Of a stretch of 40,701 bases of DNA, positions 20,716 through 36,839 are shown piece after piece. Below the pieces are notes generated by a model that saw only the letters and a program-made list of their open reading frames with translations, was not told the DNA's origin and did no database searches. The stretch is from Bacillus nitratireducens (GTDB taxonomy: Bacteria > Bacillota > Bacilli > Bacillales > Bacillaceae_G): positions 1-40,701 of the forward strand of contig NZ_MAOC01000018.1 in NCBI RefSeq assembly GCF_001884135.1, in the 5' to 3' direction. A program made the translations under genes and the position numbers. Position 1 is the stretch's first letter, and each line of letters opens with the position of its first letter.

Positions 20716-22490
20716 TGCTTTGGAGAAGTGTAGTAGGGAAGTTATGGATGACCATATTACTTCTCGTTTCGTTTGTTCTTGGATTTGTTGCGATTTTACT
20801 TTCGCAGTTTTTTAGAACATATTATGTTGATATGAGTGAAGCTAGGCTTCAAAAAGTTGCAACTAGTGTTTCAGAGCTAATTGAAGAAGGTGCCGATGTA
20901 AAAACGATTGAGAATATCGCGTACAAATTCTCTGATCCACTTTCAAGAATCATTATTGTAGAAGATGGTAAGGAGATTTCCTCTTCTCCGAAACAAGAAG
21001 GGTTAGTTACTCTAACAATAGATGATTTAAAAGAAGATAAAGAATTAGCTGCTGTATTTAAAGACAAAAAAGAAATTAAAAATAACATTAGAAAAGCTTC
21101 TAATAGCAGGAAGAATAAAAATACTGAAAATGATATTATGATCGTCGGAAAACCGGTGCAATCAAAAAATCAAAGTGCAGTGTTCGTATATGAATCATTA
21201 CAAGTGCCGATACAAGGTATGGAGAGAACGACTGATTTTATTTTCTTATCGGCTGGGATTGCGATTATATTAACAACCTTCTTTGCGTTCTTCTTATCTA
21301 CTCGAATTACAGCACCGCTTCGTAAAATGCGTGAGGTTGCTTTTGAGGTGGCACGTGGGAAGTTTGATGCAAAGGCTCCTATGGTTTCTCAGGATGAAAT
21401 TGGTGAGCTTGCAACGGCCTTAAATCAAATGGGGAAACAGTTGAAGTTTAATATGAATGCTTTGCAGCAAGAAAAAGAACAGTTAGCTAGTATTTTGAGT
21501 AGTATGGCAGATGGGGTTATTACGTTAAATCAAGAAGGGGCAGTCGTAGTTATTAATCCACCGGCCGAACATTTCTTACAAGTGTGGCAAGAAGAAAAAG
21601 AGATAGAGCTAAGTAAAAAACTACCTTCTGAACTTGTTGAGTTATTCCATCTTGTTGTAGAAAGTGAGCAACAACAAGTTGTTGAAATTAATTTGCAAAA
21701 AGGTAACTACGTAGTTCTTATGACGCCGCTTTACAATCAAACGAAAATTCGTGGGGCTGTAGCAGTGTTGCGTGATATGACGGAAGAACGTCGTCTTGAG
21801 AAGATGCGTCAAGACTTTATCGCGAATGTATCACATGAACTTCGTACACCGATGGTCATGCTTCAAGGGTATAGTGAAGCGATTTTAGATGATATTGTGC
21901 AAACGAAAGAGGAAATTAATGAGTTTGTTCAAATCATTTATGATGAATCCGTTCGTTTAGGTAAGCTTGTAAATGAATTATTAGATTTAGCTCGTATGGA
22001 AAGTGGTCACGTAGAGTTACATATTGGTGAAGTAGATATTCATCCATTTGTCGAAAAAATTGGCCGTAAATTCCAAGGGATTGCAAAGGATAAAGAAGTT
22101 CAATTAACAGTTGATTTCCAAAGCCCAATTGAACAATATCCGTTTGATGCAGATCGTATGGAGCAGGTATTGACGAATTTAATTGATAATGCAATCCGTC
22201 ATACAAATGCGGGTGGACATGTTACACTTGTAATTAATACAGAAAATAGTGGCCTTACTTTTGAAGTGCAGGATTCAGGTGCGGGTATTCCAGAAGAAGA
22301 TATTCCGTTCTTGTTCGATCGGTTCTATAAAGCTGACAAAGCGAGAACGCGTGGGAAAAAGGTTGGAACTGGACTCGGACTTGCGATTGCTAAAAATATT
22401 GTTCAAGGTCATGATGGAAAGATTTCTGTATCGAGTGTCGTTGGAGAAGGAACTACATTCTCTGTATATTTACCAAATCGTATAATTTAG
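20715..22490 (+). CDS. resE: Redox sensor histidine kinase ResE
   Basis: This 591-aa membrane kinase is the partner of ResD. TM1 is at ~10-32, the extracytoplasmic region ~33-173, TM2 ~175-197, HAMP ~198-250 (TRITAPLRKMREVAFEVARG) and PAS ~255-360 (ILSSMADGVITLNQEGAVVV). The phosphoacceptor box NVSHELRTPMVMLQGYSEAI has His374. The ATPase domain shows LTNLIDNAIRHT, DSGAGIPEEDIP, FDRFYKADKAR and GTGLGLAIAKNIV. All catalytic elements are intact. The 5' end overlaps resD by one base. In B. subtilis sigX follows resE; here it is replaced by a cobalamin adenosyltransferase gene. Confidence 0.96.
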   Translation: MLWRSVVGKLWMTILLLVSFVLGFVAILLSQFFRTYYVDMSEARLQKVATSVSELIEEGADVKTIENIAYKFSDPLSRIIIVEDGKEISSSPKQEGLVTLTIDDLKEDKELAAVFKDKKEIKNNIRKASNSRKNKNTENDIMIVGKPVQSKNQSAVFVYESLQVPIQGMERTTDFIFLSAGIAIILTTFFAFFLSTRITAPLRKMREVAFEVARGKFDAKAPMVSQDEIGELATALNQMGKQLKFNMNALQQEKEQLASILSSMADGVITLNQEGAVVVINPPAEHFLQVWQEEKEIELSKKLPSELVELFHLVVESEQQQVVEINLQKGNYVVLMTPLYNQTKIRGAVAVLRDMTEERRLEKMRQDFIANVSHELRTPMVMLQGYSEAILDDIVQTKEEINEFVQIIYDESVRLGKLVNELLDLARMESGHVELHIGEVDIHPFVEKIGRKFQGIAKDKEVQLTVDFQSPIEQYPFDADRMEQVLTNLIDNAIRHTNAGGHVTLVINTENSGLTFEVQDSGAGIPEEDIPFLFDRFYKADKARTRGKKVGTGLGLAIAKNIVQGHDGKISVSSVVGEGTTFSVYLPNRII

Positions 22491-31347: not shown

Positions 31348-32222
31348 TGCCAACTTCAAATGGAAACTATAATATAAAAGCTGTTTCGAATATACTCGGA
31401 ATTCAACCGAGTACACTCCGCGCATGGGAAAGACGTTATCATATTATTGCCCCAAAGAGAAATCATGCGGGGCATCGTTTGTATACAGAAGAGCATATTC
31501 ATATTTTGAAATGGTTAATGAACAAAGTTTCTGGGGGGATGATGATTGGACAAGCCGTTCAGTTATTAGAAGAGAATCGGTTGCAGAACAACATTCAAAT
31601 AGAAAAAATTACTGATAAAGAAGTTGTTTTAGTGGACGATATACTACAAGCTTTGTTAGAATTTGATGAAATTACAACTTCTGTATTATTAAACGAGGTT
31701 TTTAGTATATATTCAACGGAAAAGGTTGTTATAAGTATCATTCTTCAAGTGGCAAACAAGTTGTTAATTTTAAAAAATAATAATGAGATTACAATGTCAC
31801 AATTCAAATATGTTGTATCATTCTTACAAACACGTCTAGGAATGATTTATCATAATGCATCAGTGTATTCTTCCGTTAACAAAGTTTTCGTTTTAGAAAA
31901 TAATATATTAAAAGGATTTATTTTCGCGACGTATTTACGAATAAAAGGATATCAAGCAATGTATATGGGGACAAGTTTAGATGAAGAAGGTATTTTACAA
32001 GCTATTGAACAATTGCAACCTAAGTATTTGTTTATATCTTTTGATGATGAGCGAGAACTTGAAGAGGCAGTAAGATTTATTGATTTGTTGCAAGCAAAAA
32101 ATAAAAATCTCTTTGTTGGTTTTATAGGAAGAAAAAGCATTGGGGATCAATTAAATCTTCAAAATATCCTTATTGGTAACACGAAAGAAGAATGGGATGG
32201 ATGGTTAAGAATGTCAGAATAG
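31347..32222 (+). CDS. MerR-family regulator with cobalamin-binding-like domain
   Basis: This 291-aa protein has an N-terminal MerR winged helix (residues 8-75: YNIKAVSNILGIQPSTLRAWERRYHIIAP). The middle is helical and the C-terminal domain Rossmann-like, in the order of CarH/MlrA/LitR regulators that bind B12. The helical cap and linker are present (KGFIFATYLRIKGYQAMYMGTSLDEEG). The expected DxHxxG base-off motif reads ENNILKG, so the lower-ligand His is missing and B12 binding is doubtful. It starts on the stop codon of ypbG with a GGAGGGA site and is inserted between ypbG and mecB relative to B. subtilis. The target is unknown. Confidence 0.82.
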   Translation: MPTSNGNYNIKAVSNILGIQPSTLRAWERRYHIIAPKRNHAGHRLYTEEHIHILKWLMNKVSGGMMIGQAVQLLEENRLQNNIQIEKITDKEVVLVDDILQALLEFDEITTSVLLNEVFSIYSTEKVVISIILQVANKLLILKNNNEITMSQFKYVVSFLQTRLGMIYHNASVYSSVNKVFVLENNILKGFIFATYLRIKGYQAMYMGTSLDEEGILQAIEQLQPKYLFISFDDERELEEAVRFIDLLQAKNKNLFVGFIGRKSIGDQLNLQNILIGNTKEEWDGWLRMSE

Positions 32223-32299
32223 TTGTTCGAAAAGAACCATCTATTTTCTATTTCATATAATAAAAATTAGATGCAATGGTTACGTAGGGAGGGTATGAG

Positions 32300-33233: not shown

Positions 33234-34520
33234 ATGGTAGCCGAAAAGGGAACTCAAACGAAAACACAACAACAAGGGGAACAACATTTTGAATTGTTAA
33301 ATTCAACACAAATTGTAATTAATGAAGCATTAGAAAAATTGGGTTATCCAAACGAAGTATATGAATTATTGAAAGAACCAATTCGTATGATGACAGTGAA
33401 AATTCCAGTTCGTATGGATGACGGGACTGTTAAAATATTTACAGGATATCGTGCACAACATAATGATGCTGTTGGTCCAACGAAAGGTGGAATTCGCTTC
33501 CATCCAAACGTAACAGAAAATGAAGTGAAAGCACTTTCTATTTGGATGAGTTTAAAATGTGGTATTGTTGATTTACCATATGGTGGAGGTAAAGGTGGAA
33601 TCATTTGTGACCCACGTGAAATGTCTTTCCGTGAATTAGAAAGATTAAGCCGCGGTTATGTACGAGCAATTAGCCAAATTGTTGGTCCGACAAAAGATAT
33701 TCCGGCTCCAGATGTATTTACAAACTCACAAATTATGGCATGGATGATGGATGAGTATAGCCGTATCGATGAATTTAATTCACCAGGATTTATTACAGGT
33801 AAACCACTTGTATTAGGTGGATCACACGGACGTGAAACAGCGACTGCAAAAGGTGTAACAATTTGTATTCGTGAAGCTGCGAAAAAACGTGACATTGATA
33901 TTAAAGGTGCACGCGTTGTTGTTCAAGGATTCGGTAACGCAGGTAGCTTCTTAGCTAAATTTATGCATGATGCAGGCGCGAAAGTAATTGCAATTTCAGA
34001 TGCTTACGGTGCACTACATGATCCAAATGGATTAGATATTGACTATTTACTAGATCGTCGCGATAGCTTCGGTACTGTAACAAAACTATTTAATAATACA
34101 ATTTCAAATACAGAACTGTTAGAACTTGATTGTGACATTTTAGTTCCTGCTGCAATTGAGAACCAAATTACAGAAGAAAATGCTGATAAGATTAAAGCGA
34201 AGATTGTGGTTGAAGCTGCAAATGGCCCAACTACATTAGAAGCAACAAAAATCTTAACAGATCGTGGTATTTTACTTGTTCCAGACGTATTAGCAAGTGC
34301 TGGTGGCGTTACAGTATCTTACTTTGAGTGGGTACAAAATAACCAAGGTTACTACTGGACTGAGGAAGAAGTAGAACAACGTTTAGAAAAAGTAATGGTA
34401 AAATCATTCGATTCAATCTATGAAACATCACAAGTTCGTAAAGTGAACATGCGCTTAGCTGCATACATGATTGGTGTTCGTAAAATGGCTGAGGCTAGTC
34501 GCTTCAGAGGTTGGGTATAA
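33234..34520 (+). CDS. gudB: NAD-specific glutamate dehydrogenase GudB
   Basis: This 428-aa hexameric enzyme converts glutamate to 2-oxoglutarate and ammonium, linking nitrogen and carbon catabolism. Signature residues are GPTKGGIRFHPNV, the catalytic Lys in PYGGGKGGI, PAPDVFTNSQIMAWMMDEYS, and the Rossmann motif VVQGFGNAGSF. The region corresponding to the 9-bp duplication that inactivates gudB in laboratory B. subtilis is single here (TENEVKALSIW), so the enzyme should be active. Next to mecB and ypdA, it is GudB rather than RocG by synteny. ATG 33234 with an upstream AGGGGG at a rather long distance. Confidence 0.94.
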   Translation: MVAEKGTQTKTQQQGEQHFELLNSTQIVINEALEKLGYPNEVYELLKEPIRMMTVKIPVRMDDGTVKIFTGYRAQHNDAVGPTKGGIRFHPNVTENEVKALSIWMSLKCGIVDLPYGGGKGGIICDPREMSFRELERLSRGYVRAISQIVGPTKDIPAPDVFTNSQIMAWMMDEYSRIDEFNSPGFITGKPLVLGGSHGRETATAKGVTICIREAAKKRDIDIKGARVVVQGFGNAGSFLAKFMHDAGAKVIAISDAYGALHDPNGLDIDYLLDRRDSFGTVTKLFNNTISNTELLELDCDILVPAAIENQITEENADKIKAKIVVEAANGPTTLEATKILTDRGILLVPDVLASAGGVTVSYFEWVQNNQGYYWTEEEVEQRLEKVMVKSFDSIYETSQVRKVNMRLAAYMIGVRKMAEASRFRGWV

Positions 34521-34540
34521 TATATAATGTTTTGAGAAAG

Positions 34541-34573
34541 CGTGATTTCCTTTCGAGGGAATCGCGTTTTTTT
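34541..34573 (+). terminator. Intrinsic terminator after gudB
   Basis: A stem CGTGATTTCC / GGGAATCGCG with a TTTCGA loop and two non-Watson-Crick positions is followed by seven T residues. Confidence 0.8.
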
Positions 34574-34600
34574 GTTGAAGTATTAAATGAGGTGTTGTAT

Positions 34601-34809
34601 ATGGGGAATGAAATGATGGAACGGGTAGACCAATTAGAAGAAAAGGTTAAGGTGTTAGAGGGTGAACTTGCAAGAGTTAAGAGAGCCCGAAAGACAAGTA
34701 TCGTTCGGGTGTTCGGCGAAGGATTATTGTTTTAATATTTGGTGCATTTGTAGTTGGACCAATTATCGCGTTTATATTCACAATTATTACTTGGCTTGTT
34801 GAAAAATAG
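34601..34809 (+). pseudogene. Frameshifted coiled-coil / membrane protein gene
   Basis: ATG 34601 has a GAGGTG site at seven bases. The frame encodes a 44-aa coiled-coil protein (MERVDQLEEKVKVLEGELAR) that stops at 34735. From about 34720 a different frame, -1 relative to the first, continues without interruption to TAG 34809. It encodes one membrane span (IIVLIFGAFVVGPIIAFIFT) and the tail TWLVEK. Joined, the product would be ~70 aa: coiled coil, basic loop, TM helix, in the style of phage XhlA-like hemolysin/holin-associated proteins. A single-base change near 34710-34722 would restore the frame. It could be a true mutation, a sequencing error or frameshifting; no slippery heptamer was seen. 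Function unknown. Confidence 0.6.
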
Positions 34810-34826
34810 AATAAAAAATAAAAAAA

Positions 34827-34861
34827 GAACGCTTGTTCTACACGAACAAACGTGCTATACT
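34827..34861 (+). promoter_or_regulatory. Promoter with LexA (SOS) boxes
   Basis: The -35 is TTGTTC (34833-34838), spacer 17 nt, -10 TATACT (34856-34861). GAACGCTTGTTC (34827-34838) is a perfect palindromic LexA core (GAAC-N4-GTTC) overlapping the -35. CGAACAAACGTG (34843-34854) is a second, imperfect box within the spacer, 17 bp away centre to centre. LexA bound at either would block transcription until DNA damage. Confidence 0.7.
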
Positions 34862-34904
34862 TTCCTTAGATAAGCAAAACGGAAATGATTTTAAGGAGAG
34901 ATAA

Positions 34905-35141
34905 ATGATGAAAATGACAGTAGACCAAAGATTTATGATGCCAGCAGATGTTGTAGAACGAGTGGAAGTATTACGAAAAAAACAAAGTAAGCGTGGCACA
35001 TTATTACAATCGGTAAATAAATTTTTCGGTTTAGATACGAAAGAAGATTGTGTTTGGTTTTACGGTTTTTATGGAGTGGCTGTAAGTATTTTATTATTTA
35101 TGGTATTCACATCAAATATTTTCGATTTTATCTTCGCATAA
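34905..35141 (+). CDS. Small membrane protein under probable SOS control
   Basis: This 78-aa protein has a charged N-terminal half (VDQRFMMPADVVERVEVLRKK) and a C-terminal hydrophobic segment at about residues 51-77 (FYGVAVSILLFMVFTSN) that ends the protein. ATG 34905 (or 34908) follows AAGGAGAG. The promoter upstream carries LexA boxes. I do not recognise the family. Size, single TM and SOS control recall division inhibitors such as YneA and SidA, or a holin-like protein. It is followed by an amidase gene after 77 nt with no terminator, so the two may be cotranscribed. Confidence 0.7.
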   Translation: MMKMTVDQRFMMPADVVERVEVLRKKQSKRGTLLQSVNKFFGLDTKEDCVWFYGFYGVAVSILLFMVFTSNIFDFIFA

Positions 35142-35218
35142 GAAATATGCTATAAGGACATTGCTACCGAATACATATAAGGAAGTAAGGTAATTTTCTA
35201 CAGCGGGAGTTGGTAGTA

Positions 35219-35749
35219 ATGGCGATGTTTCCTATAGAGCGTAACTATATTGGATATGGAAGTTCACGACCGGGAATTCCTCTTTCTAAAGTAAGGTTTA
35301 TTGTAAGTCATGATACGGGGAATCCTGGTAGCAATGCGATAGGGAATCGAGATTACTTTAATGAAATACAACCGAAAGCTTCGGCGCATACATTTATAGA
35401 TGACAAAACGATATTGGAAATTGTTCCTATAAATGAAGTTGCGTATCATGTTAGATATGGTGTGCCGACGGATAATGACTTATATGGTTATGATGCGAAT
35501 AAGGCTGCCATTGGGGTAGAACTTTGTTATGGCGGTGAGGTTAACTTTTGGGAAGCATATACTCGTTTTACGTGGTATCATGCGTATTTATGCCAAAACT
35601 TCGGTTTGAATCCGAAAAAAGATATCGTATCACATAAAACACTTGATCCAGCTAGAAAGATTGATCCTGAGAATGTATTAGGGAAACAAGGCATTAAATT
35701 TCAGCAGTTTTTAGCAGATGTCTATCGGATGTATGTTTCGTTTAGATGA
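35219..35749 (+). CDS. N-acetylmuramoyl-L-alanine amidase, phage-lysin type
   Basis: This 176-aa protein consists of one Ami_2 / PGRP-like domain. Zinc ligands are His31 (VSHDTGNP), His139 (VSHKTLDPARKIDP) and probably Asp149. HTFIDDKTILEIVP and AAIGVELCYGG are also typical of the XlyA/CwlA/PlyL group. It cleaves the bond between MurNAc and the stem peptide. There is no signal peptide and no cell-wall-binding domain, so release would need lysis or a holin-like partner. ATG 35219 has a GGGAG site; the frame is open a little upstream. It has its own terminator and is absent from this position in B. subtilis. Confidence 0.88.
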   Translation: MAMFPIERNYIGYGSSRPGIPLSKVRFIVSHDTGNPGSNAIGNRDYFNEIQPKASAHTFIDDKTILEIVPINEVAYHVRYGVPTDNDLYGYDANKAAIGVELCYGGEVNFWEAYTRFTWYHAYLCQNFGLNPKKDIVSHKTLDPARKIDPENVLGKQGIKFQQFLADVYRMYVSFR

Positions 35750-35785
35750 CAAATATATGAAAAATGAATACAATAAAGATAGGTG

Positions 35786-35809
35786 CCTACTGCTGTAAGT
35801 AGGTTTTTT
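35786..35809 (+). terminator. Intrinsic terminator after the amidase gene
   Basis: A short stem CCTACT / AGTAGG with a 6-nt loop and six T residues. Confidence 0.8.
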
Positions 35810-35858
35810 CTTGTTTTTATAAATAGTGTATTGGTAGAAGACTAGGAGTGAGCTGAGT

Positions 35859-36839
35859 ATGCAGAAAGAAACAGCTATCATAATTGGAGGCGGTCCGTGC
35901 GGATTAGCAGCAGCAATTTCGTTGCAAAAAGTAGGGATAAATCCGTTAGTAATTGAAAAAGGAAACATTGTAAATGCAATTTATAATTATCCAACTCATC
36001 AAACATTTTTCTCATCTAGTGAAAAATTAGAAATTGGTGAAGTTGCATTTATTACAGAAAATCGTAAGCCATTTCGTAACCAAGCGCTCGCGTATTATCG
36101 TGAAGTAGTAAAGCGTAAATCTGTACGTGTAAATGCATTTGAACGAGTGGAGAAAGTTCAAAAAGATGGAGAAGTTTTTCGGGTTGAGACGACAAAGCGT
36201 GACGGAAGTAAAGAAATATATATCGCGAAATATATTGTTATAGCAACTGGATATTATGACAATCCAAATTATATGAATGTTCCAGGTGAGAAACTTGAGA
36301 AAGTAGCGCACTATTTTAAAGAGGGACATCCTTATTTTGATCGAGACGTGGTAGTTATAGGTGGGAAAAACTCGAGTGTAGATGCCGCGTTAGAACTTGT
36401 TAAAGCAGGTGCGCGTGTAACGGTACTATATCGCGGAAGTGAGTATTCATCAAGCATAAAGCCATGGATTCTGCCGGAGTTTGAGGCATTAGTACGAAAC
36501 GGCACAATTCAAATGCATTTCCAGTCTCATGTGAAAGAAATTACTGAACATACATTAACGTATACAGTTGATGATGAGGCATATACAATCCAAAATGATT
36601 TTGTATTTGCGATGACTGGTTACCATCCTGATCATAGCTTCTTAACGAAGATGGGTGTTCGGATTGATGAAGAAACAGGGCGTCCGATTTATACAGAGGA
36701 TACAATGGAAACAAACGCTGAAAATATTTTCATTGCAGGTGTAATTGCTGCTGGGAATAATGCAAATGAAATATTTATCGAGAACGGTAGATTTCATGGG
36801 GATGCGATTGCGCAAACCATTGCATCAAGGGAAATATAA
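35859..36839 (+). CDS. ypdA: NADPH-dependent bacillithiol disulfide reductase YpdA (Bdr)
   Basis: This 326-aa FAD/NADPH flavoprotein of the thioredoxin-reductase-like family regenerates bacillithiol from its disulfide in low-GC Gram-positives. The FAD motif is AIIIGGGPCGLAAAISL with Cys14, the Cys reported to be needed in S. aureus YpdA. The NADPH motif is VVIGGKNSSVDAALEL and the C-terminal FAD motif FIAGVIAAGNN. The CxxC of thioredoxin reductases is absent, as expected. ATG 35859 with an AGGAGTGAG site. It follows the inserted SOS/amidase block; in B. subtilis it is directly after gudB. Confidence 0.94.
   Translation: MQKETAIIIGGGPCGLAAAISLQKVGINPLVIEKGNIVNAIYNYPTHQTFFSSSEKLEIGEVAFITENRKPFRNQALAYYREVVKRKSVRVNAFERVEKVQKDGEVFRVETTKRDGSKEIYIAKYIVIATGYYDNPNYMNVPGEKLEKVAHYFKEGHPYFDRDVVVIGGKNSSVDAALELVKAGARVTVLYRGSEYSSSIKPWILPEFEALVRNGTIQMHFQSHVKEITEHTLTYTVDDEAYTIQNDFVFAMTGYHPDHSFLTKMGVRIDEETGRPIYTEDTMETNAENIFIAGVIAAGNNANEIFIENGRFHGDAIAQTIASREI

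What the first reader, a model, noticed from the sequence alone, without database searches (positions are those of the whole stretch)
34601..35809. Possible domesticated SOS-inducible lysis-like cassette between gudB and ypdA
Three small genes fill the gap between gudB and ypdA, which are adjacent in B. subtilis. First is a coiled-coil plus TM protein (frameshifted), then a 78-aa TM protein behind a promoter with a perfect LexA core (GAAC-N4-GTTC), then an Ami_2 amidase lacking signal peptide and wall-binding domain. The order and types recall xhlA-xhlB-xlyA of PBSX-type prophages, but no other phage genes are present. If true, DNA damage would switch on a holin-like protein plus a lysin outside any prophage.
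Basis: partly seen in the sequence, partly recalled or inferred. Interest (0 to 1): 0.8.

Follow-up and report, generated by a model that had tools for sequence, protein, structure and literature searches.

The report
SOS-controlled membrane protein and amidase operon
Between two housekeeping genes of a Bacillus-type bacterium lie a small membrane protein gene behind a conserved DNA-damage (LexA) switch and a phage-type cell-wall-cutting enzyme gene, so DNA damage probably turns both on, but the idea that they are a leftover phage lysis cassette is only partly supported.

Summary
The anatomy is real. The 78-aa protein is a DUF3961 single-pass membrane protein; the enzyme is an XlyA-type Amidase_2 without signal peptide or wall-binding domain. 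This 12-mer is the most conserved block of the aligned region, coding DNA included.

The phage-cassette reading is weaker. The broken coiled-coil gene is absent from four of four relatives. DUF3961 does occur in prophages, but apart from their endolysin, beside a divergent Cro/C1-type repressor in 15 of 18 loci. Two relatives keep the amidase behind gudB without DUF3961 or a perfect LexA core; one of them retains a conserved element 5' of the amidase, hinting at a second promoter.

Best reading: a LexA-repressed membrane effector set in front of an older chromosomal lysin-type amidase. SOS control is likely (about 0.85); a lysis outcome is plausible but unproven (about 0.4).

The parts
34601..34735 (+). 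coiled-coil piece of a broken small ORF (44 aa); the TM piece is in another frame and ends at 34809; not conserved in relatives, probably not part of the system
   Evidence: pieces examined apart
34826..34839 (.). LexA (SOS) box, core GAACGCTTGTTC at 34827-34838, overlapping the -35 region
   Evidence: core conserved in 5 of 5 DUF3961 loci
34833..34861 (+). promoter: TTGTTC (weak -35), 17-nt spacer, extended -10 TGCTATACT; spacer 17 nt in three relatives, 18 nt in Bacillus sp. 165
   Evidence: sequence; the consensus scan did not list it (-35 matches only 3 of 6)
34843..34856 (.). second, imperfect LexA-like site CGAACAAACGTGCT, not seen in the four relatives; with the first box it forms a hairpin that reads as a minus-strand terminator
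34905..35141 (+). DUF3961 (PF13106) single-pass membrane protein, 78 aa; predicted TM helix about 46-77
35148..35179 (+). conserved element 5' of the amidase (TGCTA-N16-GAATACATATA); possible second promoter or leader
35219..35749 (+). Amidase_2 of XlyA type, 176 aa, catalytic domain only, no signal peptide
35785..35809 (+). terminator-like hairpin with T-run closing the unit before ypdA

Best explanation
A LexA-repressed two-gene unit. In undamaged cells LexA sits on the -35 region of the promoter at 34833-34861. When DNA damage cleaves LexA, the cell makes a DUF3961 membrane protein and, by read-through, more of a cytosolic endolysin-type amidase. I infer that DUF3961 is a toxic or growth-halting membrane effector kept under tight repression, by LexA here and probably by a Cro/C1-type repressor in prophages. 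I further infer that in heavily damaged cells its action on the membrane lets the amidase reach the wall, so that some cells lyse or leak vesicles. Shown by sequence: gene content, conserved LexA box and promoter, no terminator found between the genes, intact putative active-site residues, no secretion signal or wall-binding domain. Inferred: LexA binding, co-transcription, toxicity, membrane breach, lysis.
For: LexA core and -10 region are the most invariant 12-column blocks of the 455-column alignment (11 and 10 of 12). recA, lexA and uvrB of these four genomes carry one-mismatch boxes of the same kind; a lexA box was seen in 19 of 19 family genomes. B. thuringiensis LexA was shown to bind canonical and poor boxes in pairs (PMC4551915, PMC6182141, passages). 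No terminator between DUF3961 and amidase in 4 of 4 loci checked with a simple stem finder; one after the amidase in 3 of 4. H31, E101, H139 and D149 of the amidase are invariant in 13 of 13 sequences (roles recalled), with XlyA its nearest solved structure by sequence and fold. A Cro/C1-type HTH gene is divergent from DUF3961 in 15 of 18 viral loci (two of them checked by Pfam). In B. subtilis, expressing PBSX xhlA, xhlB and xlyA together causes vesicles and lysis (PMC5589764, passages and section 9).
Against: No expression or binding data. The window's own box is at chance frequency on its own, scores below the relatives' boxes, and fails the narrow matrix. DUF3961 matches no holin model and is one TM helix. 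In PBSX all three genes, two of them membrane proteins, were needed for vesicles (PMC5589764 section 9); here only one intact membrane protein is present. Prophages carrying DUF3961 have lysis genes elsewhere. G004 and G019 keep the amidase without DUF3961 and without a perfect LexA core, so the two proteins are separable. The linkage of the two genes looks like one inherited arrangement, not several independent ones. D149 is not invariant once two distant Fusibacter sequences are added.
Confidence: 0.43

Rival explanations
1. Division checkpoint: DUF3961 is an SOS-induced small membrane protein that stops septation, doing the job of YneA, which this family seems to lack; the amidase is a bystander.
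For: YneA is a single-TM SOS division inhibitor that binds FtsW through its TM domain (PMC13396833, outline and abstract). 0 of 19 family genomes have a YneA match over the family cut-off, which 1 of 14 control genomes meets. No YneA-like ORF of 65 aa or more was seen, by eye, divergent from lexA in 19 of 19 loci. DUF3961 is single-TM and LexA-controlled.
Against: 15 of 19 family genomes lack DUF3961 as well, so the vacancy need not be filled by it. Matches below the YneA cut-off exist in 19 of 19 genomes, mostly in longer reading frames, and a diverged YneA elsewhere is not excluded. DUF3961 has almost nothing outside the membrane, whereas YneA needs its LysM domain. No FtsW test was made.
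Confidence: 0.27
2. Only DUF3961 is the SOS target; the amidase is an older gene with its own promoter, used elsewhere (for example mother-cell lysis or muropeptide turnover).
For: G004 has gudB-amidase-ypdA with no DUF3961 and no LexA core but keeps TTCTA-N16-GAATACATATATAGGG before the amidase; G019, which branches outside the other cassette genomes on the YpdA tree, also has the amidase right after gudB. The 12-mer GGAATACATATA occurs once or twice per genome, and in 4 of 6 genomes one copy is here.
Against: I recognised no sigma motif in the element; the sigma-70 scan lists none there, only a 9-of-12 match ending at 35134 inside DUF3961, and it finds fewer sites than shuffles do (3 against 6.7). 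The reversed control 12-mer is as frequent genome-wide. No terminator isolates the amidase from the SOS promoter. G019 has a one-mismatch LexA-like site 45 bp before its amidase.
Confidence: 0.22
3. A domesticated xhlA-xhlB-xlyA lysis cassette of a PBSX-type prophage.
For: Amidase is of XlyA type and has relatives in 139 phage records, the best at 51.7% identity in a Brevibacillus phage; DUF3961 has phage relatives; gene types and order look similar; LexA box.
Against: First gene absent from relatives and without an XhlA match; second gene is DUF3961, not a holin family; the phages examined carry DUF3961 away from the lysis genes; no phage DNA match.
Confidence: 0.05

Closest known systems
PBSX xhlA-xhlB-xlyA of B. 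subtilis
   Same: DNA-damage control; membrane protein gene before an Amidase_2 gene of the same fold
   Different: outside any prophage; no XhlA or holin homologue; amidase has no wall-binding domain; direct LexA box instead of a phage regulator (PBSX regulation and XlyA architecture recalled)
SOS division inhibitors YneA, SosA, SidA, ChiZ (the last three from recall and listings)
   Same: LexA-controlled small membrane proteins; ChiZ (Rv2719c) is also titled a cell-wall hydrolase
   Different: no LysM or sizeable extracellular domain; different sequence family; amidase is a separate cytosolic protein
HTH-DUF3961 pair of prophages (loci L053-L067)
   Same: same DUF3961 core, kept beside a repressor-like gene
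   Different: about 40 aa instead of 78; phage HTH protein instead of LexA; no amidase beside it
Explosive cell lysis of Pseudomonas aeruginosa (Lys endolysin)
   Same: lysin-driven lysis of some cells releasing vesicles and DNA
   Different: there in a pyocin (phage-tail) cluster; unrelated genes; comparison from recall and abstract start (PMC4834629)

Membership tests
LexA regulon | LexA box overlapping the promoter, conserved across genera | tested here: met
   5 of 5 DUF3961 loci
LexA regulon | box matches the lineage's own recA/lexA/uvrB boxes | tested here: inconclusive
   narrow matrix: poor; broader matrix: rank 3-4 of 40,688 for the window, E. antri-type box expected 0.025-0.05 times per window
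LexA regulon | LexA binding and RecA-dependent induction | not testable with these tools
   needs bench work
DUF3961 (PF13106) | profile match over the curated cut-off | tested here: met
   78.8 bits against 25
Amidase_2, XlyA type | profile match, fold and conserved putative catalytic residues | tested here: met
   residue roles recalled from XlyA/PlyL/AmpD; D149 not invariant in the more distant set
Phage endolysin | place in a phage lysis module | tested here: not met
   no phage family among 14 neighbouring proteins scanned; the rest of the window was not scanned
Phage endolysin | wall-binding domain (usual, not universal) | tested here: not met
   no second Pfam domain
Holin | match to a holin family | tested here: not met
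   no holin hit in Pfam or PHROGs; one TM helix
Holin | membrane permeabilisation that releases a lysin | not testable with these tools
   needs bench work
PBSX-type xhlA-xhlB-xlyA cassette | XhlA-like first gene conserved with the other two | tested here: not met
YneA | TM plus LysM domain, beside lexA | tested here: not met
   no LysM hit in DUF3961 protein; different locus
AmpD recycling amidase | equivalog model over cut-off | tested here: not met
   33.9 bits against 143; fold match weaker than to XlyA

The most novel reading that the evidence does not exclude
DUF3961 is a so far unnamed class of tightly repressed small membrane effector shared between prophages (beside a Cro/C1-type repressor) and chromosomes (under LexA). 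Captured in front of a resident lysin-type amidase, it gives a prophage-free, DNA-damage-triggered lysis or envelope checkpoint in a lineage that seems to have no YneA.
Probability: 0.3. Interest if true: 0.75.

Novelty: new variant of a known kind. Interest (0 to 1): 0.47.

Why it matters
If true, a chromosomal gene pair outside any prophage would link DNA damage to membrane attack and wall cutting, a route to lysis, vesicles and DNA release that prophage curing would not remove. It would also give a first functional lead for DUF3961, a family for which the full-text search of the held library found no paper, and might show what stops division during SOS in Bacillus relatives without a recognisable YneA.

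Tried and rejected
Rejected: xhlA likeness of the 34601 ORF (only coiled-coil or TM matches below cut-off; no phage match; one 20-residue chance hit, E 4.4, outside the gap). Rejected: close plasmid or phage origin of the DNA block (no match). Rejected: DUF3961 as the phages' own holin. Rejected: an Rfam RNA in 34000-36500 (none). Tested and not supported as an exact swap: DUF3961 replacing YneA, because YneA is missing in genomes with and without DUF3961. Not solved: what reads the GAATACATATA element (one search shows it is not a widespread exact motif). The first LexA matrix went against the site and is reported; the second used nine distinct boxes, unweighted. Searches with the 78-aa protein alone in viral contigs, phages and plasmids found nothing; its last 48 residues found one phage and the alignment query 18 viral loci. 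The amidase found one distant viral contig (30% identity). The last lines, fractions of invariant columns by stretch, mixed two numberings and were not used. The defence-family library gave nothing for DUF3961 or the amidase. Literature: no paper holds DUF3961; searches listed nothing that I recognised as this cassette, judged from titles and abstract starts of the papers listed (one search listed 20 of 104). Papers: PMC4551915, PMC6182141 and PMC3998124, passages; PMC5589764, passages and section 9; PMC13396833, outline and abstract; PMC6851548 and PMC4834629, listing only; SidA recalled. The host of the window is not known from any call; a B. cereus-group origin is my guess from recall.

Full report
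What is there. The gap between the glutamate dehydrogenase gene (33234-34520) and the YpdA-type reductase gene (35859-36839) holds a broken small ORF (34601-34809), a 78-codon ORF (34905-35141) and a 176-codon ORF (35219-35749). The 78-aa protein is DUF3961 (PF13106, E 2.4e-22). The 176-aa protein is Amidase_2 (E 6.4e-20) with only the catalytic domain. I scanned 14 neighbouring proteins with Pfam, not the whole window: they include MecA, a MerR-type regulator, cytidylate kinase, an S1-domain protein, a RecQ-type helicase and an asparaginase, one had no match, and none is a phage family (5, 9).

Is the LexA box real? In the window alone it is not remarkable: one perfect core, 0.52 expected. 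The test is conservation. A scan of genome contigs with the amidase gave ten loci. In all five copies the core reads GAACNCTTGTTC, followed by TGCTATA, with 17 nt between TTGTTC and the -10 hexamer in four and 18 in Bacillus sp. 165. In the five-row alignment of 455 columns the most invariant 12-column block is the LexA core (11 of 12), then the -10 region (10 of 12), ahead of any coding block (9 of 12). GTTC is also part of the -35 hexamer, so the telling half is GAAC, kept in 5 of 5. Perfect cores are rare in these four genomes: 30-51 per 3.5-5.4 Mb, fewer than the reversed control pattern.

Calibration. The same four genomes carry one-mismatch boxes at lexA, recA and uvrB. A matrix from those 12 sites scores the window box poorly because its outer bases are A and T (5.4, about 27 equal or better per random window). 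A lexA box was seen in 19 of 19 family genomes (18, the last), and 11 of the 18 carry T at one outer position. With the lexA variants included the window box ranks 3rd or 4th of 40,688 positions, and a second site 17 bp downstream ranks 4th or 3rd; sites at 21738 and 32216 score higher. About 1-2 sites as good as the window box are expected by chance, but only 0.025-0.05 as good as the E. antri box. I take LexA control as likely, about 0.85. B. thuringiensis LexA was shown to bind a canonical box and a poor neighbouring one (PMC4551915, PMC6182141, passages).

The transcription unit. A simple stem finder saw no terminator between DUF3961 and the amidase in 4 of 4 loci examined, and one after the amidase in 3 of 4; the pattern scan agrees for the window. 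Read-through is expected. However, a two-block element (TTCTA-N16-GAATACATATATA) lies 5' of the amidase in three relatives, with a slightly changed copy in the window and a more changed one in Bacillus sp. 165. It is also present in G004, which has gudB-amidase-ypdA with no DUF3961 and no LexA core. It may be a second promoter; I could not assign a sigma factor, and the sigma-70 scan lists nothing there. Its exact 12-mer is no commoner in the genomes than the reversed control.

History. Of 19 genomes in the family group, 6 have the amidase (E 1e-30 or better) and 4 of these have DUF3961. G019 has the amidase right behind gudB, no DUF3961, and only a one-mismatch LexA-like site 45 bp before the amidase. 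In 12 of the 13 genomes without the amidase the end of gudB lies directly upstream of ypdA; in the 13th (G009) the gudB signature was not found. On the YpdA tree G019 branches outside the other six cassette genomes (97/94), with G004 unresolved among them; the smaller GudB tree agrees weakly. So the amidase probably came first, and the LexA-DUF3961 unit was added in front of it, with a possible loss in G004. The pairing is then one inherited event.

What DUF3961 is. In 397 genomes of the order it passes the cut-off in only 4. All 5 cassette proteins match two PHROGs families of unknown function. In viral contigs an alignment query found 18 loci; 16 of them code for short proteins of about 40 aa, equal to the DUF3961 core. 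Geobacillus phage GR1 has one too. In 15 of the 18 an HTH gene related to that of L056 stands immediately upstream on the other strand; the two examined match Cro/C1-type HTH. An endolysin related to that of L056 lies upstream on the same strand in 14 of 18. L056 itself has an SPP1-type holin and an Amidase_2-SH3 endolysin; GR1 has annotated holins and an amidase about 5 kb away on the other strand. Within 300 nt upstream of DUF3961, 0 of 18 viral loci have a perfect LexA core and 1 of 18 (L070) a one-mismatch core. So DUF3961 looks like a prophage accessory protein rather than their holin. Being held by two unrelated repressors suggests it is harmful when made; that is inference. The predicted model is a helical N-terminal part and one long C-terminal helix, 46-77 (pLDDT 78, pTM 0.44).

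What the amidase is. Nearest solved structures are XlyA by sequence (E 8.7e-9) and by fold (Foldseek 1.8e-11, then PlyL and AmiA). His31, Glu101, His139 and Asp149, which I equate from recall with zinc and catalytic residues of this fold, are invariant in 13 of 13 sequences; Asp149 is not invariant in a set of 10 with two distant Fusibacter proteins. By protein search it has relatives in 139 phage records, all under 60% identity, best 51.7% in a Brevibacillus phage, and in 10 plasmid records, so a phage origin at some time is likely. Relatives outside the cassette in Anoxybacillus, B. timonensis and Fredinandcohnia are longer proteins (311-421 aa), so the short form has probably lost a C-terminal part. 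With no signal peptide it should stay in the cytosol until the membrane is breached.

How it most likely works. SOS induction raises DUF3961 and the amidase together; DUF3961 disturbs the membrane; in cells past rescue the amidase reaches the wall. PBSX shows that membrane proteins plus such an amidase cause vesicles and lysis in B. subtilis, but there all three genes were required (PMC5589764, passages and section 9), and here only one intact membrane protein is present. The main rival is a division checkpoint: 0 of 19 family genomes have YneA over its cut-off and none was seen beside lexA, but 15 of the 19 lack DUF3961 too.

Verdict. Real, conserved and probably SOS-controlled; not a domesticated xhlA-xhlB-xlyA cassette as such; lysis plausible and testable. 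No host genome was held for the window, so its own lexA and recA boxes could not be checked.

Noticed in passing
L036-L039 and L107-L121 (lexA loci): No YneA-like ORF (SOS division inhibitor) was seen beside lexA in 19 of 19 family genomes, while a resolvase gene remains divergent from lexA, often with a small gene that I take from recall for ynzC.
   Followed up: partly
L056:5461-7137 and L062:5615-6979: Two prophage DUF3961 genes lie near candidate anti-phage genes: a SIR2-domain protein matching PADLOC PDC-S25 (E 3.5e-179) and an AbiGii-like protein (E 4.7e-11).
   Followed up: partly
window 35148-35179: Conserved two-block element before the amidase, kept in a relative that lacks DUF3961 and the LexA core; unknown regulator.
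   Followed up: partly
window 32216-32229 and 21738-21751: Two LexA-like sites score higher than the box under study in the broader matrix; the first, AGAATAGTTGTTCG, lies about 70 bp before a MecA-family gene.
   Followed up: no
window 34829-34853: The two LexA-like sites form a hairpin followed by T's on the minus strand, a terminator-like signal with no obvious minus-strand gene; not kept in the relatives' alignment.
   Followed up: no
window 34601-34809: Small coiled-coil plus TM ORF with its two pieces in different frames, not found in the six related loci checked.
   Followed up: partly
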